Source: Tetrapyrgos nigripes
Taxonomy: Eukaryota; Basidiomycota; Agaricomycetes; Agaricales; Campanellaceae
DNA: 64,000 bases
Direction of reading: 5' to 3'
Assembly: GCA_013368315.1 (NCBI GenBank)
Contig: JAACJM010000199.1
Location: forward strand, 1 to 64,000
The notes under the pieces are model-generated. The model saw only the letters and a program-made list of their open reading frames with translations. It was not told the DNA's origin and did no database searches. Each line of letters opens with the position of its first letter. Position 1 is the stretch's first letter. A program made the position numbers and the translations under genes. Of this stretch, positions 1 through 22,007 are shown piece by piece.

Positions 1-91
1 CGCTGCACATGGGGGGGAGAGGATGGACCAGGGCGATGTAGATTGGGCAGAGGTCATCAAGCTAGATGTGTAGTTCAGTGGACATCCCTAC

Positions 92-388: not shown

Positions 389-390
389 AG

Positions 391-830: not shown

Positions 831-1196
831 CTCTTTTGACCAATCTATTCGCTTGTAACCGGCTTTCTCATATTGTGTGACTTGGGTGGTTATTGAGTGT
901 ACCGACAACCCTGACACGTACATCCTAAGAATACCCACAGTACCTAAGAAACTCTGAAGCTTGCTAAGGTCCTTTGGTATGGGCCATGTCTTAATTACTT
1001 CCACTTTTTCTTCATCCAGTTCCCGACCTTCATAAGTACATATATGACCAACTATCTTAGCTTCTGGACTACAGAGGAACGTCTTCTTCCCAGAGAAGGT
1101 CCCACCAGTGTACTTCATGCACTGCACTACTCAATTCAAATTTTGGAAGTGGTCCCAGATGAATTTTCTTATGCCCAGATTTTCTGATATTGTCTC
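820..1196 (-). pseudogene. Ty3/gypsy reverse transcriptase, C-terminal part (relic)
   Basis: Minus-strand translation matches the end of the gypsy reverse transcriptase palm and thumb. It reads ETISENLGIRKFIW next to the hAT insertion, then FSGKKTFLC, EAKIVGHICTYEGRE, VEVIKTWP and FLGTVGILRMYV. In-frame stops (for example just before VVQCMKYTGG) show that it is dead. The preceding part of the same domain lies at 2230-2376, separated by a hAT element. Low-coordinate homology fades near 830, where the LTR of another element abuts. Confidence 0.75.
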
Positions 1197-1204
1197 ATAG
1201 CCCC

Positions 1205-2221
1205 CAGTGTTGTCCTTAAGGCCTTAATTAAGGCCACCCAATGAAGTTACATCTTAAATTGTTAATAATAGTTTTTAATTAAGGGCATTTTAAGCCCAAA
1301 TTAAGCCACCTGTACTAAATGAAGGGGTGTGGGCCAGCGCTGAGCGTGGCGGAAACGAGTCCAGTGAGTTCAAATTTAAGATGCTAGACCACACTCCAGT
1401 GAAGATATTCAACAAAAAACAGATATTGCTGGTTCAATTTCTGAGAAAAGTACTAGAGTGTAGATCATTGTGTAGAATCAGAGGCTCAGAGCTATAATCA
1501 ATATACATGAGAAGAAGATACAGCCCTTGAGCTCTTGAAAAGGGAATACTTACATGCTGAAAATACAAAAATATCTGCTCGGCAGAAAGGCATACAGAAA
1601 CACACTTTTTTACAGATATATCTTATATCAGTAGTAGTGATGTGATCTATCCGTCAAGTGGATATTTTTGTCTTTTCAGCATATTACAAGAATAGGGGTG
1701 CATATTCTCTATTACTGGAGAAAATTGGAAAGAAATTTGATCAAGACAGATAGAGGAAATCGGGACAAACTCAACATAGCCACACGCAGAAATGCAGTGT
1801 AAAGAACTCGTCCTCATTCTTCGGCCTCATAAAAATCTGGTCCTCTAGAACACTCCCAATCCAGCATCATTTATTAGACTTCCTGCTGTAGAAGCTACAC
1901 ATACAACTTTTTGACAGTATATGCTGCTCTTTGTCCCAAGAGTCTGTGTCTGACTGCAGCAATGACTTTGAATAGTCTTCTTGCCTGCAGAAAAAAATGA
2001 AATGGTGATCCTTAATATTATGAGCAAATGTAGATAAGTAGACAGCTTTTGAACAGTCTTGAGCATATCATTGTCTCCAGAAGAAAAAAAAGAGCAGTGG
2101 CTGTGATAATGCTAAGGTCTTAATTAAGGCTTAAATTGTTTTTCTTCTGAAGTTAGGTCTTAAATTAAAAGTTTTTTAAGGCCTTAATGTTAATAACTGT
2201 TAAGGCTTAAGGACAACACTG
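1205..2221. mobile_element. Non-autonomous hAT element, 1017 bp
   Basis: The ends are perfect 16-bp inverted repeats beginning CAGTGTTGTCCTTAAG. They are flanked by an exact 8-bp target duplication, ATAGCCCC, at 1197-1204 and 2222-2229. CAGTG-type ends and an 8-bp duplication are diagnostic of the hAT superfamily. Subterminal copies of AAGGCCTTAA are present at both ends. No ORF resembles a transposase, so it must have been moved in trans. It sits inside a gypsy reverse transcriptase, whose reading resumes on the far side. Confidence 0.9.
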
Positions 2222-2229
2222 ATAGCCCC

Positions 2230-2376
2230 CATCCTCAGTTTCATATCTCGACGGTGGTCCCTTGATGGGCACATCGTCTACATAAGGAATAGTGACATGA
2301 GGCATCTCCTCCTTGAGAATGTAAGTAACATTATCATGGAAAATCGCTCGATACATCAGTAAGTACACTCTTGTAG
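2230..2376 (-). pseudogene. Ty3/gypsy reverse transcriptase, catalytic part (relic)
   Basis: Minus-strand translation reads MYRAIFHDNVTYILKEE, then MPHVTIPYVDDVPIKGPP and RYETEDGGY. YVDD is the catalytic box of reverse transcriptase. The peptide continues after the hAT element as ETISENLGIRKF at about 1196, so the two blocks are one interrupted domain. Upstream gag, protease or integrase parts of the same copy are not recognisable. Confidence 0.8.
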
Positions 2377-2409
2377 AGGTGTTTCATTTTCTTACATGTC
2401 TTTTCAGAA

Positions 2410-2841
2410 TTATGCTCTTCCCATGCAATGCGCTTTTGTTCTCTTCGTATATGCACAAGTTGTCCCTTTCTTGGGCCCAGATGCCTTCACTTTGCCTCCT
2501 CCATTATGACTCTTGACAGCAGTCCCATCAAGACTAACTGGATCATTCCAAGCTCTAATCTCAAGGAAGCTACATCTAGCGATAAACCCAATCGCAATGT
2601 TCTCTTTGCGATTGAACCTCAGTAAGAGTGCATCGTTATCTACCTTCCATCTTCTTTCTGATCTGGGACATGAACCTCTAGAGACCCAAAAACCGGCCAG
2701 TTTCACAAGGGCGCAAGAATCCTTGATTATTATGTGTCCACACTCAGAAACTTTGGTAGAATGGTCAAGATTGAAGACGACAGAATGCTTTGGCGACGAA
2801 AGATTGAGAAATTCATGTTTCCTGAGGACAAGGATTCTCAA
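2410..2841 (-). pseudogene. Unidentified open frame next to the gypsy relic, possibly gag-like
   Basis: A 143-codon minus-strand frame without an ATG start at its upstream end. Its C-terminal third is basic and glycine-rich (SHNGGGKVKASGPKKG, then CAYTKRTKAHC), vaguely like the nucleocapsid end of a retrotransposon Gag. It lies directly upstream of the reverse transcriptase relic on the same strand. I do not recognise the rest. It could equally be chance. Confidence 0.25.
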
Positions 2842-2959
2842 AGTGTGGAACTCGGAGAGGAAGTTCTTCCTGGAAGTTGTTTTATGCTTGGTAGGCGATC
2901 TGATTTATATTTCAAGCATTGTACTCAGTGCCTTTTCAGGAATGGACTTTAGTCCATTG

Positions 2960-4697
2960 GGTACCATAGTGCTGAAGGTGTACTATGTTACCTTCCGAGC
3001 TCCTCCTTGGGATCTGGCCTCTCCTCCACTGAACACACAGAGCCCTGTGTTCATAGGGGATCTCAACCTTTCTCCCCTGTGTAAATTGACCCAAGACCTT
3101 GATCTGTCACTCGCCCAGCCGTTCAATCTCTTGATGGAATACATGAACAGCATTGATAAGGAGCTTTGCCCCGCGTTCAAAATAGTAGCCACCAACTGTG
3201 TCACTCCTTTGAAGAATCATTTGAAAGTAAGAATCTCGATGTTTCTGTTCAGTGCCGTGACTACCATTGACTTCTTTCTATAGATCTACTGTCGTACTAT
3301 GAAAGGTACTTCTTGGGATGATGCCAAGAGCGGTTTTACTCTTGGTGATCGTCTCAAAGGGCCTGAAATGGAAAAAGCCATCAAGGTTTTGAAGACCCTC
3401 TGGGATACCATGTTCCCGAATGCTGTTGAGAACCATTCACAGCCCTTGGAGAGATCTAAAGACGCTGTGAAAGCTGAGAGGAATATTCATCCTCTTGGTG
3501 TACTTTTGTACTATTACGAGTTTGTTCCCGGACAGAACTTAGTCTTCCTGAAAGTCTACCTGCCAATCCAGTGAGTTCTACCTTTTTAGAGCTCTTGCTG
3601 GCCATACTGACCTGAGTTTACTGTAGTGTATACTCTACAAACGATTTGAGTGTTTGTGAAGCGCTGGAACGATTCTACCGTTGTATTTAAGGCTGCAACC
3701 AAATACTATTAATTACTGTTATAACAGGTTAATAACATGTTACACCTGAGTTCAGTAACAGGTTTTAACTGTTATAACCTATTATAACTGCTTAGTCTCA
3801 AGTGGTGGCTCAAGGAGCGAAAAATAAGCTGTTTCAGACATATTAATACCTCTTCAGTACCTGAATAAAGACAACCTCACCTGTCAGAATATCAATTACT
3901 AACCTAAAAGAGTATTTCACCATCTAAAGTTGGTCTTGGAAAGCTTACAAAGACTGTTCCTTCATCTTCTGCCAACTTATTGCAGAGGGTGCCCTGAGCT
4001 AGGTCTGAGCATGCTAAGTGTGTAAATAAATAAAGAATTATCCTGCTTTTTGTGTGGTAATGTAGTCGCAGATTGTGCACTGAGGACATATCAGGCCAGC
4101 ATGGGTGGTAACAGTGATACCTGAAAAAGATGGATTTTTGAGACAGAAGGAGCCTACATACTTGCTACAAGTATCATGTGAAATGACGGAGAGAGGGGAG
4201 GGTTATGTGAAAGGAAAACTCTGTATGTACACTTTAGATGAGAGGTAAAGTCAGAAACAAGACCATTGTAAAGTATAAAAATGGATTCAACTGAAAATGG
4301 GCTCTGTAAAGATTATCACCAGATGGAAATTTGAGTCAAAAAAGAGTGTCCATAGGGAACCAGTTAGTAACTAGTTATAACTAGTTATAACATATTAATA
4401 CCTGTTACCTGTTAATTACGCTCTGAGGCATAACAGTATTTAACAGGTTGCAGCCTTAGTTGTATTGGTCTGACTGAACATCTCCCCGAAGGCTAGTTCG
4501 TCTGAGAGGTATCCAAAGTCTAGTAAGTAATTCAACTTGGTTGCTGGAACGTTCGCCTCTGAAACAATACCTACAGTTCTCATAGGCCTCTTGATTCCCC
4601 AGGCAAAGCTATTCAGACTTATTTGACATTCTCAATGAAGAAACACGGTTGGGAGCTGACAAGCTACTTTTCGCCTGAAGTTTGGTTGAAATATTAA
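2960..4697 (+). pseudogene. DMATS-type aromatic prenyltransferase relic, split by a hAT element
   Basis: Four exon-like blocks in order match the fungal dimethylallyl tryptophan synthase fold. Block 1 (about 2960-3226) contains LDLSLAQPFNLLMEYMN and PLKNHLK. After an intron (3227-3283), block 2 (3284-3570) reads IYCRTMKGTSW, TLGDRLKGPEMEKAI, LKTLWDTMFP and FVPGQNLVFLKVYLP. A second intron (3571-3626) precedes block 3 (3627-3687), YSTNDLSVCEALERFYRC, which runs into the hAT insertion. The last block (about 4573-4697) gives YSSHRPLDSPGKAIQTYL and LTSYFSPEVW with a natural stop at 4695-4697. Family members prenylate indoles or other aromatics with DMAPP in secondary metabolism. The N-terminus is missing, stops occur at 4494-4506, and the hAT insertion disrupts the frame, so it is inactive. 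Confidence 0.7.
3688..4458. mobile_element. Non-autonomous hAT element, 771 bp, inside the prenyltransferase relic
   Basis: Perfect 13-bp inverted ends beginning TAAGGCTGCAACC are flanked by an exact 8-bp duplication, GTTGTATT, at 3680-3687 and 4459-4466. Subterminal regions are full of TTATAAC and TAACAG motifs in both orientations, as expected of transposase-binding repeats. The interior has no transposase-like ORF. The end sequence differs from the element at 1205-2221, so this is a second, independent hAT family. Confidence 0.9.
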
Positions 4698-7600
4698 TAA
4701 CGACATTCCAATCGCTCAGGTTCTTGTTCTTCCTCATGATCATAGGCTGGTTTATCTATTTCGGTCTGAAAAATAGCTGCAAAATAGTATATGTAGCCCT
4801 CCGAGGGCCTTGAATGTGCCGAAATTCTCTGTACTTTCCACTATTTATTAGAAATCAAAGATATCTTTGATTCTGTAGGACTGTTCTAGGATAGAAAAGT
4901 CCAAGCCACCTAGACGAGGTACAAGATTAAGAACGAATAACTCCAGGTGTACTCGAGTGTAAGATGGCAATATGACGACGGCCCGTCCTTTCATCATCCC
5001 AAGCTCTTCCCCCTCGAGTTCCTGGACAAGCCCTCCACCTTTCATAGTTGTAGCCTGGGGCACCTGCTCCATCTTCTACCAACTTGGCCCCAGTCTCCAA
5101 TTTCTCCATTCCTTGTGCAATCCACCTTCCCGTGCCTTTCGGCCTCGAGTGTGATATACGCCAAAGCCAACGCGTCCATAATTAGAACTGCCAGGGACTT
5201 CCGATGGGGACGGCTCTATACGTCGGGACTCGGGGTAGACGTTAAGATATGAAGGGAGTTTTACGATCTTGAGGCATGGGCAGTAGCACCAAAGCCTTTG
5301 ATCCAACCTAGAGACAAAGATGAGCATACTATGGTTGCGAGGCCCTTTGGGACTCGTTCTTAAAACTGACGCTACTACATATGTGATTGATTGGCAAGAG
5401 CGCTCCGAAATGACCGCAGCCATTTCAACTGACGCTCAAGCGCTCAAGCCTACAAAGCACCGATGCGTCATCGATGACGAACCTCAGGCAACCTCAGGCA
5501 ACCTCAGGCTCTTACTCCAGCTTTCCCCAAAAGTCTTCATAGTGTTGAGGATGAGACCGGACTTGGCGTTTCCCGCCGACGCTAAGCTTTCTCAGAGTCG
5601 TTATCCCGACCGCTGGCAATGGCAACAGTATCCCGTACGCGTCGTCCCCAGCTGTACCTTTCTCAAGATCTCATTACTTCAGCAGATGGACGTTGCTGAA
5701 AGGGATGCATAAACAGCTTAATACAAAGTTCACGAGTAAGTATCTGATCTGTCTCCGAGTCCCGTCGATTCTGACGCAGCAACACAACAGCACCACTAGA
5801 AACGTATCAATATGCGCTAGATACGGAGAACAGAAAGTCCCATCTACCTATTGTCTGTCATAAGACGCCGACGTCCTAGCTCTTCGAAAGTCTCGTCTTC
5901 TTCTCTCCCGAAGCAAGCTGGAAGTACTCAAGGTCGTTCATATATAGACTGTTTCCTTGTCTGTTTCATGTTCTCTACCTCACGGATGCTTGGCAATGCA
6001 GCTTGCGTGCATATGTTGAGCCTTCCCTTAGATCCTTGTGAAGATTTTCATTATTTTTGCCGCCAGGAAATGATCTGCACTCGTGACGACAATGGTGGTG
6101 AAAATCATAACGAATCGATAAATTTGCATTAACCTTCTTCGAGCGCATTCTGTATTTGGTATGTACCAGTTCTGCGAGACTCAGGGAAGTAAGCGGAATA
6201 CCTTATCTGCTTCTCTACCCCTCATCCGATGTTGGCATCCATGCGCTCGCGTCAACTTGTGTATACAATATCTTGATGCAACCGCAGCCCTTCTCGGCAT
6301 TTACAGGGCTGCTGACAATGGGATCTATCACCCAAAGACAGACTTCCAAAGCTCTGGATATATCATACGTGAACTTACTTGGATCATAGCCAGAACATCT
6401 TCAGAAATATCCTTATCAATTTGTATGTCAATGTCAAATGAGACTCACTCGAGTCAATGGCTTCTATTGGCTTCCTGTTGTACACCTTTCAAAGTTTATT
6501 GACTCGAGACCCTACTTAGCCACCTCAGATCAGCTGCTACTCAATAAGAGTACCTTATTCACAAGACGAATCAATATCTCTCTGAAGAAAGGGGTGGTGT
6601 TGGTAACTTGAACTGTAGAACTTAGACGGAAAAATTCTCACGGCTGAGGAATTTGTGAATGAGTACATGGCGAGTTCAGCCAATTATGGAAGAGCAACAC
6701 GCCCAAAGCGCACCTCCGAGTCGCGATAAAGTATTTATAGTAGTCTTTGACATCCCCATCAATCATACTACATCTGGTTACAAATTGCCTGACGAGAAAT
6801 GCCAACATTCCCGTCTCTAAGTTTAGATACCCGCATAAGACCATCAGCGGGAATGTGGAGGTAATCCGAGCGTAGTGGACTATCGGAGTCAGCACTCCGC
6901 GCCAATACACAGTGTGTTCCATGGAAAATCTCATGCGTGGTGAATCACAATTGGAGCAAAATAAAAGTAAATTCGCTGCTGGATATCCTTTATTATGTTG
7001 AAGCTCACGTATCCCTCAACGTCCTTAGCGAGATCTTGGGGATAGTGCGAGGGGTGCGACTGCTGCAAAGTCTCCATGCAGTGCTTCAGCCACAATTGCC
7101 TGCCGTCAGCCGAGTTTGCCGGTGTTTTCCCGTTGATTATTTGCGCTCAACATCCACTCTCATATCTCCAGCGGTCGCGGAAAGCCCGGTGTCTATACCT
7201 GCAGTTTCTGGTAGATGCGGTTCCGCTAACCCGGATTCTCATACTAGTAGCACAGCTGTTTTCGTCTTCCAAGGCTGGTCCAGCCTATGTGATCGGCGTG
7301 TAAGAAGATGGACTTGCGGTGAAGGAGGTTCAGGGAACTGTGAGCTTCTGGGTCACCCGAGGCTGCCTTAACGAAACAGGTACGTCAATGAGTGTATAAA
7401 TCTCCGCAATGTCCTCATAATAAATCTATCTATAGATATTGAAGATAAACTGAAATTTTCGTGCCGTTGGTTAGTAACATACCGACATATGCGTATGGAA
7501 TGCCGAGCCAATATAGACCGTTTCAGAACTGTCTGTATATCTCTCTTCACGGTATATATTGCCCTATGCTTTAATGTCAAATCTTCAGTCCCTCTGCAAG

Positions 7601-7745
7601 AGATCTCCCTCCCTATCTGCCAATAAGCGCTCTAGCCTGAGCAAGGCAGCTTCCTGCTCCTCTTTCGCTACTTATCGTCTCTAAGTGCTAACTGAGACTC
7701 ATTCCCTCTTGTTCTCCGTCTCCTCACTCACTTCCCATTATCATA
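4698..7745. other. Gene-poor stretch with no recognised gene
   Basis: Only short unsupported open frames occur here, for example 5320-5712 on plus and 6638-6934 on minus; I recognise neither. A perfect tandem triplet of the 10-mer ACCTCAGGCW lies at 5481-5510. The last 150 bp before 7746 are CT-rich with TATA-like sequence, as expected for the promoter of the chitin deacetylase gene. Confidence 0.6.
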
Positions 7746-9835
7746 ATGAGGTCTCTCAGTCTCTTTCTCATTGCAACGCTGCTTCCTCGAGGTGGATGGA
7801 CCGCAGCTATCGACAGGACAGATGAAGCTAGCGAAGCGAGTATCACAGGTAAGTAAATACCATCCATTCCACCATCATTTGTATGCTAATCCTCTGCTTA
7901 TCATGTGCGAATACACAGATGGCAAAACCGAGTGTACATCGTATGACTATCCTCCCGTCACCAGTCAATTATCAAAGTTCCCCGGGAATTGGCAGACAGC
8001 GAAAATCCTCCAAAATGACGGCGTCGCCTTGGATCTTTGGAATTCTATCTCAAACTCTATCCCAAACATAGCGGTCAAGGTGAGTCACTGAGTATTTATG
8101 CGAACCGATACTGACTCATACTCTTCCGTGTGCTAATGCAACTGTAGAGCACTTCCACATCGGGATACTCTGCAAGTGATCCTGATTGCTGGTGGACATA
8201 TAGTCAATGTACCGAGCCGAAGCTAGGAGGTCTACAGCCAGATATAACTGCGCCTCCTGAGGTGAGTAGATGCAATTATATTCTCGTTTTATTTCCTTCT
8301 AACGGACAGCGCCTGTATCGTTCAACAGCCATCGACGCTCGGCTACGGTTTTGATGACGGTCCAGCTTGTGACCATAATGTTTTCTACGATTTCCTGGCC
8401 AGCAATAATCAGAAAGCTAGTACGTCTTTCCATCATTTCGTTACTTCAAGGCGTTAACAGCTTACGAACGTGATTGCCACCTTTCCTCAACAGCTTTCTT
8501 CTACATTGGCAGCAACGTCCAGAACTATCCTCTTGAAGCTCAGAGAGGCCTGGCTGATGGTATGTTTAATACGTATCTTGCGTCAATAGTAAGCTAATTG
8601 TTTTTTCACGATACTTAGGTCATGAAATCTGTGTTCGTGAGTATATAGCTATATAGATGCCTCACTCCAAGCGTCGCCTTTCCTTACTTACTGATTATCT
8701 TTAGACACATGGTCTCATCCTCATAGTGAGTTACTATCTCTCGTTAACAGCAAGTCCCCTATCAACGCATTGATCATTTTTTATCACAGTGACAACACTC
8801 GCAAGTGAGGATGCCTTCGCAGAAATTTACTATTGTATGTATCGTCTCATCATCAGTTCTACAAGCCGCTGACAGTGATGTTGTTTCTCCAGCTGTACGA
8901 GTCTTTATTTATTTCATTACCATTAGTGCTTGATGAGAACTGACCTTTCGGTTCCGCTCTATTCAGATACAGGCTGTGAAACTCGCGGTTGGCGTAACAC
9001 CCACTTGTTGGCGAGTAAGTAGAATCCCGCACTTGAGTCCTATTTTTACCTTGGCTGATCTATTCCACCCTCTAAAGCCACCCTACGGCGATATTGACGA
9101 CCGAATCCGTGCCATATCCAAAGCTTTGGGTCTCCAGACCTTCATGTGGGGCTACGACACCGACGATGCCGACGTTGGCGACGGTTCATCCGTAACAGAA
9201 GCAGATGTTGAAAACTTGTATCAGCAGTTCATCAGTAAGGCGCAGAAGGGAGATTTTAATAATGTGAGCTCATACCTATAATACTATTTTGGGTACGAAG
9301 GCTGACTGCTTCTCCCAGACTGGTGCCATAGTCCTCACTCACGAACTGAATAACTTTACCATGTCAGAAGCCGTCAAGCATTATCCTCAGCTGAAGGCGG
9401 CCTTCAAGGTATGTTTCAAACGACCGATTTATCCGGTCCCGTATAGCCCGGAGGGGAAAACTGATGACGTCATTAGAATATCGTACCTGTGGGCGTAGGG
9501 CTGAATATTACGCAGCCATACCTGGAGACAAACTACACTTTACCAAGCTTCGAGCAATGTAAGTTTCAGAATCTCGTGCATCTCAAGGGCTCTTTCTGAA
9601 GCATCGTATGACAGATATTGCTGGAAACACTGTTCTGACTGGGACTACAACAAATGTCTCCATAAGCTCGACAACGACCTCAGAGGCTCCTGCGCAAAGC
9701 TCATCTTCATCGAGCTCTCCTCCTGTGAACTCGGGTAACTCGGACAAAAATGGTGCTGTTCCGGAGGCTGTGGTATTCAGAGGCTCAGTACTCCTGACTG
9801 GGCTGATGGCAGTTATTACGACCTTTCTTCTTTAA
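7746..9835 (+). CDS. Chitin deacetylase (CE4), secreted, probably GPI-anchored
   Basis: The product should remove acetyl groups from cell-wall chitin to give chitosan. Fourteen exons close in phase to 415 residues: 7746-7848, 7919-8079, 8148-8261, 8329-8419, 8494-8559, 8619-8636, 8705-8725, 8790-8834, 8893-8894, 8967-9014, 9078-9263, 9319-9408, 9477-9558 and 9615-9835. The N-terminus MRSLSLFLIATLLPRGGWTA is a signal peptide. CE4 motifs are clear: GYGFDDGP (catalytic base Asp plus metal Asp), HTWSH (metal His pair), RPPYGD, and VLTHEL near the end. A Ser/Thr-rich tail follows, then a hydrophobic end (GSVLLTGLMAVITTFLL), the GPI-signal pattern. Several exons are tiny (18, 21 and a required 2 nt). 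Family assignment is firm; the 2-nt exon is inferred from phase. Confidence 0.92.
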
Positions 9836-10506
9836 TGTTTAAGATTTATTTTACGCAAGGACTCATGCACTGACACTCTAGAACAGTTTTGTAGGCTGGT
9901 ATTTCTGTTCTAATTCTTGTTTGTATCATGGACACGTCTTAATGACCTACTGTATCTCATGTCACACGTACGGTAGTACTACCTTCGCTTCGAATGGAGA
10001 TGTTTGGAATCTTCTGTAGGGCATCTGTAGGGCCACTCTCAATTCTGATGCAGCTAGATAATTGTAACTGATCCGTCCCCATCAGAAATAATGTTTTGAA
10101 GGATCGATCCTTACTAAGGTTAGGGTGAATGACCCCTGATGTCGATAGACATCTGCCGCGTTTACACTTCCTTTCGCTCTAAGCTCACCAAGGTCCTCGT
10201 CCTTACCATCTATTAGTGGTATTTGTCCTAGACTCAACTCTGCCCTTGTCGCCTCTTACTCCTGGGCTCTAGTAGGATCTACTAGTTGGACAACTCAACT
10301 TCAGAACGACCATCATCTTACTTGCGCCACAAAACTACGGTGGTCATTGGTCTCATTTGGGTGCGTAAGCTGTTCTATGGTTGACTTCACTTACAGATGC
10401 TAATTAGGAGCGGTTTGAAAACATCATCGTCGCCTCAGTCAGTACTATAGCTTCGTATCTTCATTGCGCCACAGAGAGTAATAGATCCACTGGCAGAATT
10501 CTGGAC
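9836..10506. other. Intergenic, no feature seen
   Basis: This holds the 3' side of the chitin deacetylase gene and the upstream side of the DUF6699 gene. I see no further ORF, repeat or RNA gene. Confidence 0.6.
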
Positions 10507-11214
10507 ATGTCATCTCCTCCTTCAAGCATGTCATTTTATCAGCCAGCATATCCAGACGAGCCTCCAGAACCAGAGTACCCATTGTATTGCAATCCATATC
10601 GACCCTTTTGGACGAGCTATTGGCATTGGACCCCCGCACGCGATAACCACCGGACGCCCGTCACTACTCACAGCGGGCCTCTGGAAACTCGTCCACAGTC
10701 GGTCATCATTGCTCGATCAGCTTCAGCTCTCCGATACATCCATCCCATTGTTCTCCGGAGAAAGAAACCGCTTCCATTTCAAGTTCAAGGACCGGTTGAC
10801 CTACATCCTTGGCTGAAGCTCAGTGGAGAGACTCATCTTCCAATGCACGTAAATTTGACGGTCCCACCGGAAGATGTCGTACGTATGAGATCTCAGAATG
10901 CTATTGAGCTTGGAGCGTTGGACTCTCCAGCTACAATTCCTGGGTTGCCGTCGATGAGCATTGTCCACGCACTTGTGCCTTGGCCGATTACAGTGTCGCA
11001 CAGCAAATTCACGTATGTGACGGTCGAAGATGTGATACTCACTCTTCTGGCTCGGTTCCAGACTCCACTTCAGAATGGAGACGGAGGGTATGTGCCACTC
11101 GAATGTAGAAGGCCAGGTGGGAAAAGATATGATATCCTCAGGGGTCAGACCAAGATGATAGGTTTACAAAGATGCGATTACGGAGGAGATATTTGGATTC
11201 TGAGGACTGCGTGA
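10507..11214 (+). CDS. DUF6699 domain protein, 235 aa
   Basis: An uninterrupted 235-codon frame starts at ATG 10507. The first 95 residues are proline- and tyrosine-rich and probably disordered. From about residue 98 the pattern of the Agaricomycete DUF6699 domain appears: DLHPWL at 98-103, an aspartate/proline-rich strand (VNLTVPPEDV), SPATIPGLPSMSIVH, PWPITV, then VTVEDVILTLLARFQTP. The domain's biochemical role is unknown; genes of this kind occur in many copies in mushroom genomes. No signal peptide or membrane segment is visible. A second, larger DUF6699 protein lies at 17760-19343. Upstream in-frame ATGs are absent, which supports this start. Confidence 0.8.
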   Translation: MSSPPSSMSFYQPAYPDEPPEPEYPLYCNPYRPFWTSYWHWTPARDNHRTPVTTHSGPLETRPQSVIIARSASALRYIHPIVLRRKKPLPFQVQGPVDLHPWLKLSGETHLPMHVNLTVPPEDVVRMRSQNAIELGALDSPATIPGLPSMSIVHALVPWPITVSHSKFTYVTVEDVILTLLARFQTPLQNGDGGYVPLECRRPGGKRYDILRGQTKMIGLQRCDYGGDIWILRTA

Positions 11215-11678: not shown

Positions 11679-12452
11679 TCAAACGGGCGAAACCTCAGGA
11701 TGCTTGGCGTTCATATGCGCCACCTCGGATTCATTTCTCCTCCAAACTGGGGGACCGGCTTCATCATCTTCACTGCGGCGCTTCCAAGCTGGGGGACCAG
11801 GCTCGTGACGCCATGCAGGTGATCCCGCTTTCAAATTGACCGAATCATTGGAAGGAGAAGAGGAAGCAGGCTCTTGATCCCATGCAGGTGGTCCTGGTTT
11901 GTTGACTAAATTGTTAGAAGAAGAAGTGGAAGTGGGCTCAGGATGCCATGCAGGTGGTCCCGGTTCATTATTCGAGTCATGAGAACGAGACTCGAGGTTC
12001 TCCGTCTCTCGACCCCTTGCTGGCGGTCCGGGCTCATTATCGGAACCAACAGAACGAGATTCGAATTCCTCCGTCTCTCGAAGCCATGCCGGTGGTCCCA
12101 GTGCTTTATCCGAATTATGAGAACGAGACTCGAACGCCTCTGGTTCTCGGTGCCATGCAGGTGGTCCCAGTTCATGATCCGAATTATGAGAACGAGACTC
12201 GGATGGATCCATGACACTCTGTAAGGACATATTTTATGAGTGATTCGGCCTAAAGAGGGGAGAACCTGGCTCACTGAAGAGCTGCTGCGCTGCACAAAGC
12301 TGACATCGCGAGACGCGCGAGATTCTATTTGCTTTGGCATGAATAAGTAAGTATGGCCTTGCAGCATAAATTAATAGAGTACTGACCACTGGATAGGCAT
12401 TGACCTTGAACAGTGTAACGAGGATGGGAAGTATGATCTGAATAACGCGCAT
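11679..12452 (-). CDS. Secreted GPPAW-repeat protein, candidate processed-peptide precursor
   Basis: Three exons on the minus strand (12387-12452, 12266-12331, 11679-12218) join in phase to 223 residues. The start ATG (12450-12452) gives a clean signal peptide, MRVIQIILPILVTLFKVNAYP. After about 40 leader residues come eight copies of a G(P/S)P(A/V)(W/R) core at residues 62, 85, 108, 131, 153, 176, 185 and 199. The first six are spaced by 22-23 residues. Each core is followed by a partly basic doublet and then E(P/T) (HREPE, LRETE, GRETE, KRRSE, RRNES), resembling worn Kex2 sites followed by Ste13-type dipeptides. The spacer ESRSHNSD is conserved in four repeats. I do not recognise a named family. 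It could be a repetitive pheromone-like or RiPP-like precursor, or simply a repetitive wall protein. Confidence 0.7.
11700..12210 (-). repeat. About 69-bp tandem coding repeat, 4-6 units
   Basis: The DNA encoding the GPPAW repeats shows a period of 66-69 bp. The plus-strand signature CATGCAGGTGGTCC (with variants) recurs near 11885, 11945, 12085 and 12155, each with a following AACGAGACTCG block in the upper half. Units decay toward low coordinates, where spacing shortens to 27-42 bp. Confidence 0.75.
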
Positions 12453-15400
12453 CTTGAAGTAGGGAAATCTTCAATGGAGGTATTGAAACAAGGAGCGACG
12501 GGCCCTTTTATATGAAATGGCATGAAGAGCACTCCACTACCCGATACATGTCTTTCTCCCACTTTGGCTTTTCGAGTCCACCACTTTGGGTTTCATCTCC
12601 TTAATCAAGCCTACTGGGATTCCAACAGCCAAGATTGAAGGACGAAACCAACTGCTGAACTCAAATTGACAGCAGATATTTGCCACTGCGGAACATGTAC
12701 TGAAGTGCGTTAAAGGGCCTTATCAGTTTTGAAAAGTTAGGAGTATCGGCTCTGGATTCAGAACTTCTACTTTTGATTTGCGACAGAAAGCTAATGATGT
12801 ATCATCCGTCGCCAATACCGCGTAACAGATTTTTGATACATGGAGCAACTAGTCCTGGTCCGCTGAGAATCCACGATGGTACCCATGAATCATTGACAAT
12901 AAGGCTCGTTAACGCGATTGATATCTGTATAACGTCCTGTTCGGATTGAGTCATCGCTTCATAGATTGAACAGGCAGCGCCTGATATACCGCAAGACTAT
13001 TTTGATAGTGTTAAGGAGGATGTCTACGTGCAGACTTAGTGCGAAAGCGGCAATCCTGCGGCGAGCCCACTGTGGCATGGACCGCGATCATTGGATTTTC
13101 ATCGAGTAAGATAAGTGGGTTTTCTATGTCATGGTGCTAAGCAGAGAATTAAACACTAGAAGGTCCAGGCACTAGACAGAGAAATACGTAGAGTGTTGGC
13201 GTAAGTGGCTGAGATGTATCCGGCACAAATGGCGTTGTGGCGGCAATACTAAACGGCCCGGCCCCGGCCCCGGCGTCACGGCCACGTGTTGCTTGTTTTA
13301 TCTCTTCTCGCAGCGACGACGATGGTGACCAGCTACATATTTGCGTCCCAGTCGCTACGGCTCGATTCATCGTCCTCTTCCCTGTCAAGATTGTCACTTC
13401 AAAGCTCAAAGCTAGGGTCAAGACCACCGTTTTGGACGGGATTGGGACGGAATTATACAAGATTGCCTGATGTGTAAGAGTGCTACGTTTGGAACATAAG
13501 CTTTTGTACAAGCTGTCTGACACTAATGGTCCAAGGATCTCTCGAAGAATCCCCCCTCGATCAGATTGTACGCCGGTGGTTACTCCAATTTGTGCTGCTA
13601 AAGACAACTTTTGAATTATGCTCAAAACTTGGCTAGTCTAGTACTTTTGCACAGCTGCTTGCAATGCCCGTCCCCAACGACGCTCCGCCTTGTCCTGATA
13701 GTGTCATGGTGCCAAGTACTGTCCGCAAATGGTACGTTCTGGCCCATTTCTTGATTCGATGTTGACATGCTAAGGCTCAAATAGGTCAAGTATGGCTCAT
13801 GATGACTCGCCATAATAGCTCCTCACGTCTCATGAGTTCCAGAGACGCAGCGAGCAAACTCCTATGTGTATCAAACTTTGACACTGTGGGTCGTTTTCAG
13901 AATCGCCGTCCGATAATCTACTGCTTGTCTAATGTCCGTCGACATCCTCCCGAGCCGATTCCGAGCATATCCACCAGGAATCAGGGCTGTACTTACTTGT
14001 GAGTTGTCGTTTCTTGCAGTCGGAGTGAGTCTGTACTTATTGATGGACATAAACACTACCAACCAGATCCTCAGGTCCAAAAATCAAACTCAGGCTGATG
14101 TCATCCGATTGGCTGAGCGGGACGTTGACGGCAGATTTCCATTGTGAAGCACACCTTTATACTCATTTCAGAACGTCGAAGCCAGCAGCTCCAAATATCA
14201 GTACCAGGAATGGTCTACGAGCCATTTGTTCTGAATTTTCGTTCTGATTTTGTTCAATGATTGCTGCAGCCTCTCTGATAGATTGTACTCACAGAGAAAG
14301 CTTCTTCCGCGTTCTTGGAGTGTAGGCGTCGACTCTTCATCGTTTTGTAGAAACAGTCATTGCCTGTTTAGGCCAGAAAGCCTCACGTCATGTCAGCATT
14401 CTCCTGAAGAGAGGTCGTTGAATACTTAATTTGGTACTATGGAACGAGAATGTTTGATGGGCTTTTTTTGGGTCTTTTGGTTTTACCATGGAATGAAACT
14501 TTCTATATTGCGTTTGAAAATGACCATCAGACGCCTTGAAGACTAGACTCAAGAAGATGCATAACATTCTCCTCATAATCTCTCGAAGCAACACGTTTAT
14601 CCAAACCTTACAACGAGGAATGATTCTGGCTATGCGTGTATATTGGTTGATTAGTGGGCCCATAGAAGCAGCAAAGCTGTAAACGGTAGCGTTGAGAGGA
14701 AGCATCCATTTCGGTCCACATTCGCAATGTAAGCTGTGTAACTGAGATACTTTGGAATATATAAGGAAAAAGGACTTCCCTGCATCTCAGGTGCTTGGTT
14801 GTTTATGATGATATATCGAGCCTATCGTCCATAACTCGACTCAGACGTGGTTAGGGACTACTGAGTCGATTACATAATCCGTTTCCATGCAACACGAAAA
14901 ACACCCTCCGAGTCGGAGTCGGTCCCATCTTACCTCCACTCTACCACTGTCAACACTAGTAAGTCAACGCATATATACTTGGGTGTGGAAAACTTTTACC
15001 CAGAAGCAGTCCAATGGCACCATAGCCTATCTCGTTGTGAAGGTCTCCTTGAATGACGCGGCTCGACGTCTATCGCATACAGGAGGAGCGACAGCCAATC
15101 AACGAAGAGTTTTTAGCTTTTGCATTTCTGATTTGCTCGGACCGAAAGCGATGGTTGTCCGTGCGTATTGCTCCATGGTGACAGAGGTACACTGAGCCTT
15201 TTCACTTGATAGACTTTCAAGACAAGAAACCTTGCTCACTTCTTCCGCCAATAGGGACGAGACTCTCAAGGCACGTCTTCCGACGAAAGTCTCGGTGTTT
15301 TGAAGTCCGCGTTCCCGCTGGTTGGACTACATATGGCATCAGGATCGGAGGCTCTTTGTCCTTGGCTACTAGGTAAGGGGTTTATCTTGTCACTCAAAGC

Positions 15401-17759
15401 TTTGACGATGCTCAGCGAATCCATTTTTACCCCAGACAGCTGCCTCTCCTTCAGTTTGCCTGGACACCTTACTAATACCGACATCTTACACTAGTCGCTG
15501 ACAGCCGCTGCTGCCAGTGCACCCGCGACGCAATGTTGGATATCAAATTGCTCACAAAAATCTCGGCGCTCAAGCTCCACTCCTTCAATGTCCCAATCCT
15601 CCTAAGCAATTTATCTATGCACTGAAGAGCCCTGAAGTTGGTTGACATGCGTCATTGCTCCCGAAATCCTCTCTACATACGGTTGCAGCTTCCTCTTCCT
15701 CTTCCTCCGAAATTGACGACAAGTCATTTTTTTTTCTCGTCTCTGCACCGATATCAACAGGATCCCAGGATAGCCGTCTTACTCGCATTTTCAATCCAAC
15801 ATCGTTATAGAGACACTGCAAAATTCGAGCCGTCATCCGGGGACCCGGAAGACAGCCAACTTCCAAGTCAAAATGGCACGACGATTCCACGACTAACTCC
15901 TTCCCTTCACTTCAAACCTTCTTGGATTTTGGATTGATTTCGCATTGGTCATTGGAAGTTTGGAGAATCCCCAGACAAGACATTCCCTGGGTCGATATGC
16001 TCTGCTCTATGCGTCGCCAGGTGATAATCTGACTGGGACTGTTGCTCGAATATTTTTATTTTTTGCTGCGTAAAGCATCGTTATACTTACACAAAGAGAA
16101 AAATAATTATGCCTTCAAATTACCTTACTCCTAGTGGTTGCGTAGGCTGTAATCCAACCTTTACTACTCTGACCGCTTTAGCTTCGTAATCCAGGTTTAG
16201 TCGTCTAGGAGTTTGCCAGTGTCATTGTCGTCCGCCTGGATGATTCTTACACTCCTTCTGCCCAAACCACCATACGGCTCTGGCCAGGCAGAACCCAAAC
16301 ACTTCTCTCTCTGCGTAAAACGAGTTCTCAGTCGCTTGACGACATTGCTTATGGCCTGACTGTCTGAATATGGCATTGCAAAACCGTTGCTTCTTCCTAC
16401 CGAAAAACCCGTCTGGATAGCGATGACAATTTGGAAAGGTGTTCAAGGTGTGTCTGATGGCCATCCGGATTCTGGGTTTTACTGATGGGAGATTCTTTAA
16501 CGAATAGACACTACAAATCTGACAAATCTACATGAAAAGCGTGTACTGAAATATAGAACGCCGGCGGATCGGTAGCTTGCTACATTTGGTCAACCTCTTT
16601 TGGATTGAGGAAATCTTTTCCCTGTTTTCTGGAACAGTCAGTCGCACTGCATTCATCCATCAAAATCTGTATCGGAGCATTGCGATTCATGGAGATTGCA
16701 GCTTTTACGCGTTTGGTAAAATGTGCATTTGACGGAGGATGTCGCTCGTTGTATGTGGTCTTTTTCTTTTAACTCTTTCCTTGCTGATGCTTGCGGAATG
16801 GCATTCACTTCAACAGCGTTTTTCCTCACCGATATGTTCCTATTGGTTATTGGTGTCATGTATACGTTCTATCTTTGAAGTTGGTTTTTCGAGGCCACTG
16901 CGACATGTTTGGAATTGCCTTCCTTAGGGCCGGTTCTGTCGGCCTTCGTCATCGTTTGGCTGTTGTGGGTCCACAGAACGGCCGTCTTTCGCCGTCTTCC
17001 AATCTTTTGACCGATTGCTGTTTTCTCTGTTTCCTGTCCGGTTATCGAGCTCCCAATAACCTCGTTTGAGGGTCTGTTGTAGATGGGCTTTGGATGGGCT
17101 TCAATGTCCTTTAGCCTTGTGGTCGTCTTCTAGAATCGCGTTCCTGGAACCTTATGGCTTGACGGGATACTTCGGACTTCTTCGTTGAGGGACGTCGTGG
17201 ATCCAGCGCAGAATGTTGATTTAGTGGAAGGGCCGTGGTTTTGGGGAGCGCCTTGAAATATCTTGCAACGATTTTCCGAGCTTTACGTTTTGACAAGTAT
17301 CATAGTGGCACCCAATAGAGAGCTGCTAGCTTGGTGATCACAGCGCGGCAGTTCTATTGGGGATTTGTTCCAGGCGTAATAGCTTCTGTGGGCGCACACA
17401 TATCTTGTGTTCTTTCTGTCATCATCTCTATGTGCGCCCATCAGCATCATCTCTTTAGCTATACAGCTGCTACACCTCTTCATTTACCGTGTCATAGTAC
17501 TCTCTTGCCACCTTTTTCCCACTTTCGTCTCATCCCAAAAACAGTCTTTCCCTCGTGCGCATAAACTTCAGCTTATTTTGCGTCACCTGCAACGGCAATC
17601 ACTTCCCTGAGATGGGAGCTAAACACGGTCTTGGGTCGCATATACCAAAGCTGCGTTCATTCATAAATAGACGGAAGCTTCTTGTTGGTCCATGTGGGGT
17701 GCATATATATATGGGAAACGCGAGTTGTATGTGGTCGTGCCATCCACTAGTATTTGACG
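12453..17759. other. Long gene-poor stretch
   Basis: About 5.3 kb with only short overlapping open frames on both strands; the longest is 13149-13625, minus, 158 codons. None has a recognisable domain, a convincing splice model or a signal peptide. I found no LTR, terminal inverted repeat or RNA gene. It may be decayed transposon or regulatory DNA, but nothing in the sequence decides this. Confidence 0.5.
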
Positions 17760-19343
17760 ATGAAGCTCCTCAAGAAGATGCGTGAAGGGGATCCTAAAAC
17801 TCCAAGTCGGAGTCACCGTCACTCGTCTCACTTGCACTCTAAGCCCAAGGCTAAAGCAACCGCCCAGCCGCCAAAGCCCAAGGTGTATATCCAAGCCCCT
17901 CATCCGGTGATAGTCACCGGATCTCCATCCAGACACGTCAATGCGACAACATCTACCCCGCAAGTGGCGCAGCTTCGTCAAAGTCATGTCACTGCCAGTG
18001 GTGCAGTGGCCACCAGACGGGGACCTGCTACGCATACGCAGAGCCTTGCTGCTGCTGCTGCCGCCGTCGCTCATGCTCATACGCATGCTCAACCTCAACC
18101 TCATACCCATACAGGTAGGTTGTCATTTCGGCATCATACTCATAGGATAAACAAGCTAATTTGCACACTACCTATCTTACCTATAGCCCGGACCCGACGA
18201 TCCTTTGCATGTCTGGCAGATTATCAGCCGGGTCAGTATGGTCCACCGATCGTCACCACCGGTCCTCCCTTACGCGAAGAGTGGATCTATCGTGGGCCAG
18301 GCCAGGGGAAGAAGAAGATTATTTATGAGAATGCGGATGTGATATATAGGGAGAGAGGAAGGGCTGTTGTTATTGATGAAGGGAGGAACAAGGTTCGGAT
18401 GATTACGCCTTCTGTTTCGACTATTGGGATGGACACGCCAATTCCGGGTATCACGCCTTCGGATAAGACGATGCATCCTAATGCGTTTGTACGGGCCAAG
18501 GCACCCTCGCCAGCTACTTCCCGGCATCACGGTCCCAGGACGCAGACGTCGTATCCAGTCTTACCCAACGTCAAAACTGTCCCTCTTCCTCTGAGACAAC
18601 AGACCTCGTTTCCAGCCTTACCTCGCGAAAGAATCCATGTCCCTCATCACGATATTCCAACTCATCGTGACCCACCACATATACATAAGGTTCTCCTTTA
18701 CCCCAACGACAATAAGGCCATTCCTACCTCGATATATTGGAATGTCACCGAGCATCCTCGTAATGCTACCCTCTTCTCCCGTGATCCCTCTATGGGCCCC
18801 ATTGAAGATTTGCCATACCCATATTACTCGAGCCAAATCATGAAGAAGTTGGCTACCGCTCCTGCTCATTTGCGTCTGACTCTACAAATTCCGGTACTGG
18901 CCAAGGCTCTGAACAGCCAGACATATAGCCAAGTTCAGGTTGTGAGGAAGGATGGTGAAGCGATAACTGTTGGCGATGTGTTGAGCAGTATCTACAAGTT
19001 TCTTCATTCAGAGTTGGACGAAGATGAGGTTGAGAGGATGACTCGGAGGGGGCGGAGGATATTGATGGATGGGTACTATAAGAGGATGACTAGGGAGAGT
19101 CGGAGCGACAGAGAGGACAGGAGAAGTCAGAGTAGGGGCAGGAGCACCGGTAGGAGCAGAGAGAGACACGCACACACGAGCAGGATGAGGGATGATGTCG
19201 ATGATGATGATGATGATTATGATCATGATTATGAGAGAAGATATATGAGGGTGGATTTGTTGGACGGGCATACGAGGTTTGCGGGGATTGTTTTGAGACC
19301 GAGCGAGGAGGTCGCCTTTGATGTGCATCTTGCTAGGGAGTGA
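17760..19343 (+). CDS. DUF6699 domain protein with basic, low-complexity flanks
   Basis: The ATG at 17760 (MKLLKKMREGDPKTP) opens a 527-codon frame. An intron with good consensus (18115-18186, gtaggt to ctatag) is 72 nt, a multiple of three without stops, so spliced and retained forms both stay in frame; removing it gives 503 residues. The N-terminal 130 residues are His/Pro/Ser/Thr-rich and basic. The DUF6699 core lies around residues 320-430 (ILYPNDNKAIPTSIYWNV in spirit, NATLFSRDPSMGP, LRLTLQIPVLAKALN, ITVGDVLSSIYKFLH). A basic SR-rich and acidic tail follows (RSRERHAHT, DDDDDDYDHDYE) before a final strand, RFAGIVLRPSEEVAFDV. Function is unknown. The low-complexity tracts suggest a disordered, perhaps nuclear protein, but that is inference. 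Confidence 0.75.
   Translation: MKLLKKMREGDPKTPSRSHRHSSHLHSKPKAKATAQPPKPKVYIQAPHPVIVTGSPSRHVNATTSTPQVAQLRQSHVTASGAVATRRGPATHTQSLAAAAAAVAHAHTHAQPQPHTHTGRLSFRHHTHRINKLICTLPILPIARTRRSFACLADYQPGQYGPPIVTTGPPLREEWIYRGPGQGKKKIIYENADVIYRERGRAVVIDEGRNKVRMITPSVSTIGMDTPIPGITPSDKTMHPNAFVRAKAPSPATSRHHGPRTQTSYPVLPNVKTVPLPLRQQTSFPALPRERIHVPHHDIPTHRDPPHIHKVLLYPNDNKAIPTSIYWNVTEHPRNATLFSRDPSMGPIEDLPYPYYSSQIMKKLATAPAHLRLTLQIPVLAKALNSQTYSQVQVVRKDGEAITVGDVLSSIYKFLHSELDEDEVERMTRRGRRILMDGYYKRMTRESRSDREDRRSQSRGRSTGRSRERHAHTSRMRDDVDDDDDDYDHDYERRYMRVDLLDGHTRFAGIVLRPSEEVAFDVHLARE
18115..18186 (+). other. Candidate 3n intron in the DUF6699 gene
   Basis: The sequence begins GTAGGT and ends CTATAG. It is 72 nt and contains no in-frame stop, so retention would insert 24 residues. 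Confidence 0.6.
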
Positions 19344-22007
19344 GATGAAGTGAGGTGCGGAGAGGAAGGAGACCGTGACAGACAGACAGAGAGAGAGAGA
19401 CAGAGTTGCAGATCTCATTTTGCGAAATGGTGACCTGACTTGCTTCTTCTGACAGTGACTACCACTATGCATCTATCCATATGTTTTGTGGGTCTCGATT
19501 TCGTTGCATGCTAGGATTCTGTGTCCGTGTTCGTCTTAATGATGATGACTGCATATATCCCCATCTCATGAATCTTATAAACGTCCGTGTAGTGTATACT
19601 TGTATCCAGGATTTAATGGAACGCCAAAAACGTTTGCCGCAGTGAGCTCAGTGAGTTTTGAGCAAGTTTTGAGAGTCATGCCGTAAACAACAGTCAACAT
19701 TTTCTCCAACCACCATCATCTGACATCATGTTATCGACATCGTCAAGCATATCTCGAAATCTTGAAGGAAGACCGTTACAAACAAGCATCAGTTGCTGTT
19801 GCTTTAGGATGTCCTGACTCCAAAGGGAAGCCAAATGATAAATTTAAATCAAGTCGCCGTACGTACATTCGTCGTTAATCCCAACAAATTTAAAGTCAGG
19901 TTGCTGCAGGCTTCACGCGCTCTCCGGATCCTCGACACCACCCTGGCGCTACTTGCCTGGCTTGAGCTGCAGAGCACCATGTGCAGAATCGCAGAAGTGT
20001 TATCTCTTCCTGTGTCGCTCGACCACTGTCCTTCTGTGGTCCATGCACATTCCTCGCCAATCTCATCAGCGAAGGCCTACTAAAACGAACCTTCTACTCG
20101 CCATTCCGAGTCCTATCCGAAGACAAGCCTTGCAGACTCCTCGCAGAGTGCACTGTCGAATCTCGACCTTCCATCAAGAATTGCTTGGGACTAACTGCCT
20201 CTATGCCTCCTCCCTCCATCGCTACCAAGGTTACCAGAGATAGCCTTGGCAGTGCGCCCCTGGTCCCTGGAGGCTTTAATTCATCCTCTCTCGACATAAT
20301 TGATGATTTTCCCGTCTCTATCTAACGGCAGCTGTATTATGATCAAGACGCAGTCAGAATGGGGATCGTTAGGAGGGTTGTCGGCCGCAGCGGTGGTTGT
20401 ACTTGTACAAGTCCGTCACTTCGCTGGTTTGCAGTCTGGAGGTCTGACCTGGTCCGACAGGTCGTGGAGCTGAGACGCTGTTCGCTCTTATGCCCTCTCC
20501 GGGGATTCTTTTTTCGTGGAATGGGTCTATCATCGACGACTGCTGATGCTAAACAAACTGTGTCATATGCTGGGCCAACCATTGGGAATAGCATTGCGTG
20601 ATTGCGTCCTGGTCGCTGTTGCTATTGCCGTCGTCGTCGTCGTCGTCGGGGCCATTTGCTGCCATTTCCATGGCTGCTTTCCAAAATCCCAAGAGACAAG
20701 ACGAAAAAACGAAGACGTAGTCTATGACGGATCAAACCAGAGATTTGGATGTGGAAGGCTTGCGTCATATGGAGGTCTGCAGTAATATGTATGCCATTCC
20801 GATGCCTCCTTTGGTCATCGTTTGATTTCTGCTACGCTACTGTCTCCTCACTATGCGCAAATGCTTGTTTTTTGGACTTTTGTGGATGTTACGAAGTGCT
20901 AAGCGGCGTTGAATTCATGGAGGTCGTTGTGAGCGTGATAGCTGCAAGCGACGTCTCTTCCGTGTCTCCACTTCGAACTCGGCGTCGTTTCCCATGTCAT
21001 ATCGTTTATTCTCTTTCGGTAACATAGTATCGTTTGACTTCGTGTCCATGCTCCGCTACCCTGCCTTCACTATATTTCTCAACGGTGTTACGGGGTGCTA
21101 GGCGGTGGATTACTTGAGGCTCCATGGAGGTTGCTGTGGGCGTTATACATAGTAACATACATAGTTGGAAGCGACCTCTCTTCCGTGGCTCTAATTCGGA
21201 CTCGGCGTCGTTCCCCATGGGCCATGTCGTATCGTAAACGCATGTTGAAAGCATGTATGCAATACATACCACTATCACTTGAATTTTGCTTTCCTCATGC
21301 CTCTCGGAAGAGAGCTGGTTCCTGTATAAGTTACAACGCCGTTTCGGGATAGCGAAGTCCCGAAAATGGGCTATATTTGACTATAATCAATGTCTTCTGA
21401 AACAGTCTTCAGTGCGTCCATAGGGATGGTACCAGGGAGACGACCAGGGAACCTAAGATTGCCGCGAGAGGGTCCGCATTTCCTCCGGTTATCGTGTCCC
21501 TTAGTTAGTGCCACCACACTTATAATCACTTGGCGGACTCAGGTCCTGATAGCGCCCATTTCCGGATCTGGATTGTGCGTTTGACGTGTACCGCCTACTC
21601 CCTGGAGGTGTGTGAAGCGCCCACTTTCTGGATCTGCGTTTGACGTGCAGGAGTATCGATGTAGCCAATGGGTAACGTCTTCTAATATAAGCTTATGCGT
21701 CCTGTCCATGGGATAATGCTTGACTAGTGATGTGCAGGCCTAAGCCCGCCCAAACCAAGCCTAAGCTAAAGACAATGTGGAAAAGTGCCTTGCTTCAATC
21801 ACAAGTTCACAACTTAAGGATAATTGATAATGATGCGCAGGGACCAGGTGAATTGAAGATCGTGCTCATGCAATTGTCAAGCAATTGTTGTCAGTAAGTA
21901 ATAAGTATGTAAGTACTAGTAAACTAACAAGCTCTACTGTTAAAACGTTAACCCGATAAATAATCAGATAAATAACTCAAAGTACATCCCTTAAATAAAT
22001 AATGAGC
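19344..22007. other. Gene-poor stretch with diverged direct repeats
   Basis: No convincing gene. Two related segments (20889-21007 and 21087-21236) are listed separately. A short duplicated motif around CGGATCTG...GCGTTTGACGTG occurs at 21560-21583 and 21629-21645. Near 21738 the sequence CAGGCCTAAGCCCGCCC resembles the end of a hAT-type element, but no partner end was found. Confidence 0.5.
20889..21236 (+). repeat. Diverged direct repeat pair
   Basis: Segment 20889-21007 and segment 21087-21236 share ordered blocks: TTACG..GTGCTA.GCGG, CATGGAGGT.G..GTG.GCGT, AAGCGAC.TCTCTTCCGTG.CTC and ACTCGGCGTCGTT.CCCATG. The second copy carries about 30 extra bases. The pattern fits an old tandem duplication of about 200 bp period. 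No coding function is apparent. Confidence 0.7.

What the first reader, a model, noticed from the sequence alone, without database searches (positions are those of the whole stretch)
11679..12452. Secreted 23-residue GPPAW repeat protein with worn Kex2-like sites: candidate peptide precursor
Seen: a signal peptide followed by eight G(P/S)P(A/V)(W/R) cores, six at a 22-23 residue period. Each is followed by HR, LR, GR, HP, DQ, RH, KRR or RR and then mostly E(P/T/S). Established: repetitive secreted precursors cut by Kex2 at KR/RR and trimmed at E-A/E-P dipeptides give fungal pheromones, repellents and some RiPPs. Inference: only the two C-terminal repeats keep true dibasic sites, so the gene may be a diversifying or decaying precursor releasing a short Pro/Trp peptide. 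No tailoring enzyme (for example a UstY-like protein) is adjacent.
Basis: partly seen in the sequence, partly recalled or inferred. Interest (0 to 1): 0.75.

Follow-up and report, generated by a model that had tools for sequence, protein, structure and literature searches.

The report
Mushroom Trp-ended peptide precursor, partly worn
A mushroom gene encodes a secreted protein that repeats the short motif GPPAW; it resembles known mushroom peptide precursors but keeps clear cutting sites only near its end, and the same genome holds a cleaner precursor of that kind and overlooked receptor genes resembling the yeast alpha-factor receptor.

Summary
On the minus strand, 12452..11679, a spliced 219-aa protein has a signal-peptide-like start and eight G(P/S)P(A/V)(W/R) cores; only cores 7 and 8 are followed by dibasic sites. 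The genome is Tetrapyrgos nigripes (Agaricales). The gene is probably unannotated. The core codons look conserved by selection (pN/pS 0.14 against 0.60 in the spacers, copies 1-4), and the eroded sites lie nearer to dibasic codons than chance gives. It works like a KEX2-processed repeat protein (KEP) with Trp-ended cores, a kind known from mushrooms (Coprinopsis releases GPPAPSW and DDDPEGPPAPSW). It fails the published KEP counts, so I file it as a KEP-like variant, not a member. Predicted clean product: SEDDEAGPPVW, perhaps trimmed to GPPVW. The genome also holds a canonical Trp-ended KEP on contig C18. Following the ligand idea, I found about 11 places encoding STE2-like (alpha-factor-receptor-type) 7TM proteins, one inside the STE3 cluster, with relatives in other Agaricomycetes; a 2025 survey and a 2026 review restrict STE2 receptors to Ascomycota. 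Nothing shows that these receptors bind the peptides.

The parts
12505..12512 (-). TATA-like box 60 nt upstream of the start codon
   Evidence: TATAAA found at 12512
12383..12452 (-). exon 1 (model A): signal peptide MRVIQIILPILVTLFKVNA and start of the pro-region
   Evidence: hydropathy of the N-terminus high; SignalP not available
12325..12382 (-). intron 1 (model A), GT..AG, 58 nt; model B uses 12386..12332
12275..12324 (-). exon 2 (model A): pro-region; absent in model C
12219..12274 (-). intron 2, GTGAGC..TTACAG, 56 nt
11679..12218 (-). exon 3: repeat domain with eight cores, to the stop codon
12153..12167 (-). core 1 GPPAW, followed by HR EP
12084..12098 (-). core 2 GPPAW, followed by LR ET
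12015..12029 (-). core 3 GPPAR, followed by GR ET
11946..11960 (-). core 4 GPPAW, followed by HP EP
11880..11894 (-). core 5 GPPAW, followed by DQ EP
11811..11825 (-). core 6 GSPAW, followed by RH EP
11784..11798 (-). core 7 GPPAW, followed by KRR
11775..11783 (-). KRR, dibasic site after core 7
   Evidence: aa 186-188
11742..11756 (-). core 8 GPPVW inside SEDDEAGPPVW, the only fragment with dibasic sites on both sides
11736..11741 (-). RR, dibasic site after core 8
   Evidence: aa 200-201

Best explanation
A secreted precursor of short linear Trp-ended peptides that works like the mushroom KEX2-processed repeat proteins, but with most of its Kex2 sites eroded. Shown: signal-peptide-like start, eight cores, two dibasic clusters, fewer amino-acid than silent changes in the core, and Kex2-type and dipeptidyl-peptidase-IV-type genes in the genome. 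Inferred: the protein enters the secretory pathway; Kex2 cuts after KRR and RR; a Kex1-type carboxypeptidase trims the basic residues; this frees SEDDEAGPPVW, which other peptidases may trim to GPPVW (Coprinopsis yields both DDDPEGPPAPSW and GPPAPSW), and leaves a long N-terminal part ending in GPPAW. Cuts after the single Arg of copies 1-3 could free more, inefficiently.
For: Anatomy. Core pN/pS 0.13 over 8 copies and 0.14 over copies 1-4, against 0.60 for the spacers of copies 1-4; the two wrong frames give 1.04 and 1.36. The core is the lowest-pN five-codon window of 19. Codons after cores 1-6 are close to dibasic. Known mushroom KEP products GPPAPSW, DDDPEGPPAPSW, QMRPPSW, QYKAPSW, and apparent cuts after single Arg in Pichia (PMC9769878). 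A canonical Trp-ended KEP in the same genome. Kex2-type gene with subtilase and P domains and DPP IV-type gene.
Against: Fails the published KEP thresholds: KR/RR cutting gives three fragments of 2 aa or more (168, 13, 18 aa), not four, and not three alike. The dibasic sites are followed by SE and NE, not XA/XP. No homologue at E <= 10 in the protein collection. No expression or peptide data. The repeat copies are related, so the selection counts are not independent.
Confidence: 0.6

Rival explanations
1. A secreted, disordered repeat protein that acts uncut, for example as a wall-associated protein or an effector, with GPPAW as a repeated binding motif. The dibasic pairs near the end are incidental.
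For: Six of eight cores have no dibasic site after them; composition is rich in Ser, Pro and Glu. Conservation of GPPAW fits a binding motif as well as a released peptide.
Against: The codons after cores 1-6 are nearer to dibasic than random sets. Trp-ended KEPs with GPP cores exist in Coprinopsis and in this genome.
Confidence: 0.22
2. A decaying former KEP with no present function.
For: Six of eight cores lack a dibasic site; core 3 has lost its Trp (GPPAR); the own-genome search found only this locus.
Against: Intact frame and plausible splice sites; core pN/pS 0.13; TATA-like box.
Confidence: 0.13
3. Not a gene: a chance frame over a 69-bp DNA repeat.
For: No protein of the collection matches it, although the collection holds other T. 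nigripes proteins.
Against: Only this frame shows low pN/pS; consistent splice sites and a signal-peptide-like start.
Confidence: 0.04

Closest known systems
Coprinopsis cinerea KEP 447393 (peptides GPPAPSW and DDDPEGPPAPSW, PMC9769878)
   Same: Secreted precursor; acidic spacer, then GPP...W at the peptide end; the predicted SEDDEAGPPVW has the same layout.
   Different: GPPAPSW has seven residues and comes from a non-repetitive C-terminus; here a five-residue core occurs eight times. The full sequence of KEP 447393 was not available to compare.
Coprinopsis cinerea KEP 490115 and the Trp-ended basidiomycete KEPs (QMRPPSW, QYKAPSW; PMC9769878)
   Same: Repeated cores ending in Trp, with basic residues after some of them.
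   Different: KEP 490115 has RR sites and STE13-type XA/XP dipeptides; here only two dibasic clusters remain, followed by SE and NE.
T. nigripes contig C18 KEP (L024, found here)
   Same: Same genome; signal-peptide-like start; Trp-ended cores; two of them begin with GPP (GPPGSAFPPSW).
   Different: KR after five of its six cores, EP or EA after two of those KR; three of the four QIRPASW repeats in an exon of their own; different core sequence.
Ascomycete alpha-pheromone precursors
   Same: Layout: signal peptide, repeats, Kex2 and Ste13-type signals; cores ending in Trp in some species (recalled).
   Different: No recognisable alpha-pheromone core (the cores have no Cys); basidiomycete host. 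A resemblance of layout, not membership.

Membership tests
KEX2-processed repeat protein (Le Marquer 2019) | signal peptide | tested here: met
   By inspection and hydropathy only; SignalP not available
KEX2-processed repeat protein (Le Marquer 2019) | cutting at KR or RR (else KK) gives at least four fragments of 2 aa or more, with at least three similar | tested here: not met
   Fragments of 168, 1, 13 and 18 aa, so three of 2 aa or more; no KK (rule)
KEX2-processed repeat protein (Le Marquer 2019) | repeated motif at least 15% of the protein | tested here: met
   8 x 5 residues of 219, about 18%, counting all eight cores
KEX2-processed repeat protein (Umemura 2020) | at least three tandem repeats of 8 aa or more between Kex2 sites (KR, KK, RK, RR) | tested here: not met
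   Only two dibasic clusters (rule)
STE13-signature KEP / alpha-pheromone-like KEP | XA or XP dipeptides directly after the Kex2 sites | tested here: not met
   KRR is followed by SE, RR by NE; EP follows four of the six non-dibasic sites
Dikaritin / ustiloxin-type RiPP | UstYa (DUF3328) gene nearby | tested here: not met
   33 UstYa matches in the genome, 0 on contig C194 (counts are lower bounds)
Trp-ended mushroom KEP peptides | peptide actually released | not testable with these tools
   needs peptidomics
STE2 (class D GPCR), for the side finding | Pfam PF02116 profile | tested here: met
   Marginal: P0002 27.4 bits against cut-off 27.2; 13 of 24 aligned members match at E <= 0.1, 11 do not; 1 of 4 genome matches over the cut-off
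STE2 (class D GPCR), for the side finding | Ste2 fold | tested here: met
STE2 (class D GPCR), for the side finding | binds an alpha-factor-like peptide | not testable with these tools
   needs a receptor assay

The most novel reading that the evidence does not exclude
Mushrooms keep an alpha-factor-like signalling pair beside their lipopeptide/STE3 mating system: Trp-ended KEP peptides (GPPAW/GPPVW here, QIRPASW and GPPGSAFPPSW from C18) are ligands of an overlooked STE2-like receptor family in Agaricomycetes, one member of which sits inside the STE3 cluster of T. nigripes. The eroded sites in this gene would then mark a ligand whose dose or form is being retuned.
Probability: 0.12. Interest if true: 0.9.

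Novelty: new variant of a known kind. Interest (0 to 1): 0.55.

Why it matters
Most KEP peptides have no known function; knockouts of six KEPs in Coprinopsis gave no visible phenotype (PMC9769878). This gene keeps the core while most cutting sites are gone, so it can show which part matters. The side finding makes an open question testable: Le Marquer et al. speculated that basidiomycete alpha-pheromone-like KEPs have G-protein-coupled receptors, while a 2025 survey and a 2026 review place STE2-type receptors only in Ascomycota. A STE2-like family in Agaricomycetes gives concrete receptor candidates.

Tried and rejected
Homologues: the full model shared words with 1092 proteins, none at E <= 10; that search needs shared 5-residue words, so distant KEPs could be missed. 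Pfam on the repeat exon: 0 families at E <= 0.1. Own-genome protein search at E <= 10: only itself.

Patterns in the own genome. A triple W-K-R pattern gave 8 matches, all in one satellite on C26; the reversed control gave 119. GPPAW followed by MRN and MGN codons gave 3 matches, control 0: two in this gene and one on C171 (L017), a single copy in a short frame between stops, taken as chance. A two-copy W-(K/R)-R pattern gave 19 matches, control 12. Six of the 19 read W-(K/R)-R...W-(K/R)-R in one frame (L024, L029, L030, L031, L036, L040); a seventh (L034) reads W-R-S first. Only L024 (C18) and L040 (this gene) carry repeated cores; the others were judged by eye.

C18 model: a scripted splice search returned no chain, so the borders were set by hand from visible GT..AG sites.

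KEPs near the STE2-like genes: scanning L020-L022 and L052-L059 for W-(K/R)-R pairs within 450 nt gave one pair each in L021, L056, L057 and L059, of which only the first peptide was printed and none resembles a core; L060 gave three single W-R-R. C45 44.5-74.5 kb and 124.5-144.5 kb, the rest of C149 and C72 were not fetched.

Receptor evidence that is weak: the Pfam match is marginal and 11 of 24 aligned members miss it; PDB sequence searches reach Ste2 only at E 0.023 and 0.018; Foldseek E 0.011. In one search locus L004 was read on the strand opposite to the receptor frame (compare), so its 0 families says nothing. Alignment A2 holds 24 of the 26 hits (P0005 and P0019, both T. nigripes, left out). 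The receptor exon joins are approximate; the C158 join matched the annotated P0002 at 100% over 100% of the query.

Literature on STE2-like receptors in Basidiomycota: 129 papers, 15 listed; 0; 3; 178, 12 listed; 1; 2. I saw no report of them in what was listed, or in the passages read of PMC12842992, PMC13308352 and PMC3251606; PMC4915694 and PMC1088943 were seen in listings only. GPPAW as a term found one unrelated paper. Only open-licence papers are held, so absence from print is not shown.

Full report
Observation. The minus-strand gene 12452..11679 is as described. Three splice models stay in frame; all keep the signal-peptide-like start and the eight cores, so the choice between two and three exons does not affect the reading. 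A TATAAA lies at 12512. Cores, spacings and following residues were counted: eight cores, the first six at 22-23 residue spacing, and dibasic sites only after cores 7 and 8. Tandem Repeats Finder scores the 69-bp array at 290, and 20,000 shuffles of the 200 residues after the signal peptide never gave more than one core.

Where it is. A frame in the same window matched the annotated protein D9758_014704 of Tetrapyrgos nigripes (99% identity over 38% of the query) on a contig of 150,835 bases, the length of the window's contig C194. T. nigripes is an agaric, placed in Campanellaceae by the NCBI taxonomy. STE3-type receptors abound in the genome (22 exon-level matches), as expected of a mushroom. 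The protein collection holds annotated T. nigripes proteins, yet the repeat protein matched none at E <= 10, so it is probably missing from the public annotation (inference).

Selection. Counting silent and amino-acid-changing differences between repeat copies, the five core codons give pN/pS 0.13 (8 copies) and 0.14 (copies 1-4). The surrounding 18 codons of copies 1-4 give 0.60. The same DNA in the two shifted frames gives 1.04 and 1.36. Of nine distinct core substitutions six are silent (P 0.009). The core is the lowest-pN window of 19. The copies share ancestry, so these figures are guides. They argue for a translated gene whose pentapeptide matters, and against simple decay.

Worn sites. 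After cores 1-6 the two codons lie on average 1.5 changes from a dibasic pair, against 2.68 for random sets of six (P about 5e-5). Copies 1-3 share CGA at the second codon, presumably by descent, and offset +6 ties at 1.5, so the support is moderate. It fits the loss of Kex2 sites in most repeats.

Likely mechanism. The genome has a Kex2-type gene (P domain and subtilase; one place found, a lower bound) and a DPP IV-type gene. The only fragment flanked by dibasic sites is SEDDEAGPPVW. Its layout matches DDDPEGPPAPSW, which Coprinopsis cinerea secretes together with GPPAPSW from KEP 447393 (PMC9769878; I read the outline, results parts 1-2 of 3 and the discussion; its supplementary alignments were not available). 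The same paper reports apparent cuts after single Arg in Pichia and many basidiomycete KEPs with Trp-ended cores. From recall, a Pro after X-Pro blocks DPP IV-type enzymes, so trimming would stop at GPP. All processing of this protein is inferred.

Membership. Under the published rules it is not a KEP: cutting at KR/RR gives only three fragments of two residues or more, against the required four (PMC6339444; outline and sections 9, 15 and 24 read), and it lacks three repeats between sites (PMC7329392; outline, section 13 and passages). It is filed as a KEP-like variant. No UstYa match lies on the contig (0 of 33).

A canonical one in the same genome. A two-copy W-(K/R)-R pattern search (19 matches, 12 in the control) led to contig C18 (L024). 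Six phase-0 exons, set by hand, give a 129-aa secreted protein with four QIRPASW-KR repeats, two of them followed by EP or EA, and two GPPGSAFPPSW cores; KR/RR cutting gives six fragments. QIRPASW resembles the Coprinopsis cores QMRPPSW and QYKAPSW. An own-genome search at E <= 10 found only this locus (4 exon-level matches).

Neighbourhood. Next to the gene lies a DUF6699 gene (10507-11214). A Trp_DMAT-type prenyltransferase gene lies at about 2506-3687, one of seven such places in the genome (19 exon-level matches). By my own arithmetic about 0.001 would be expected this close by chance, but the comparison was made after the fact among many possible enzyme types. Prenylation of the peptide's Trp is a thought, not a finding. 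Pfam scans of 1-9999 and 13000-22998 on both strands showed only this gene and the second DUF6699 gene at E <= 0.01.

Verdict. A real gene-like feature and a credible, partly worn precursor of Trp-ended peptides: a new variant of a known kind. The larger interest lies in the receptor family that the question led to.

Noticed in passing
G000:C45 about 55-134 kb, C149:26800-27487, C158:129580-130292, C67:171959-172515, C72:281523-281858 (parts in L020-L022, L060): STE2-like 7TM genes in a mushroom, about 11 places, one inside the STE3 cluster on C149; relatives in other Agaricomycetes. The C72 place rests on one 32%-identity match.
   Followed up: partly
L024:886-1584 (G000:C18, about 237.2-237.9 kb): Canonical Trp-ended KEP: four QIRPASW-KR repeats, three of them in exons of their own, then two GPPGSAFPPSW cores.
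   Followed up: partly
window 2506-3687 (+): Trp_DMAT-type prenyltransferase gene (D9758_014704) about 8 kb from the GPPAW gene; seven such places in the genome.
   Followed up: partly
window 10507-11214 (+) and 17751-19343 (+): Two DUF6699 genes on either side of the finding.
   Followed up: no
window 26153-31225 (-): Open frame of 1690 codons without any Pfam match at E <= 0.1.
   Followed up: no
G000:C26:35072-35222: 11-bp unit TGGAAACGAAG repeated in tandem.
   Followed up: no
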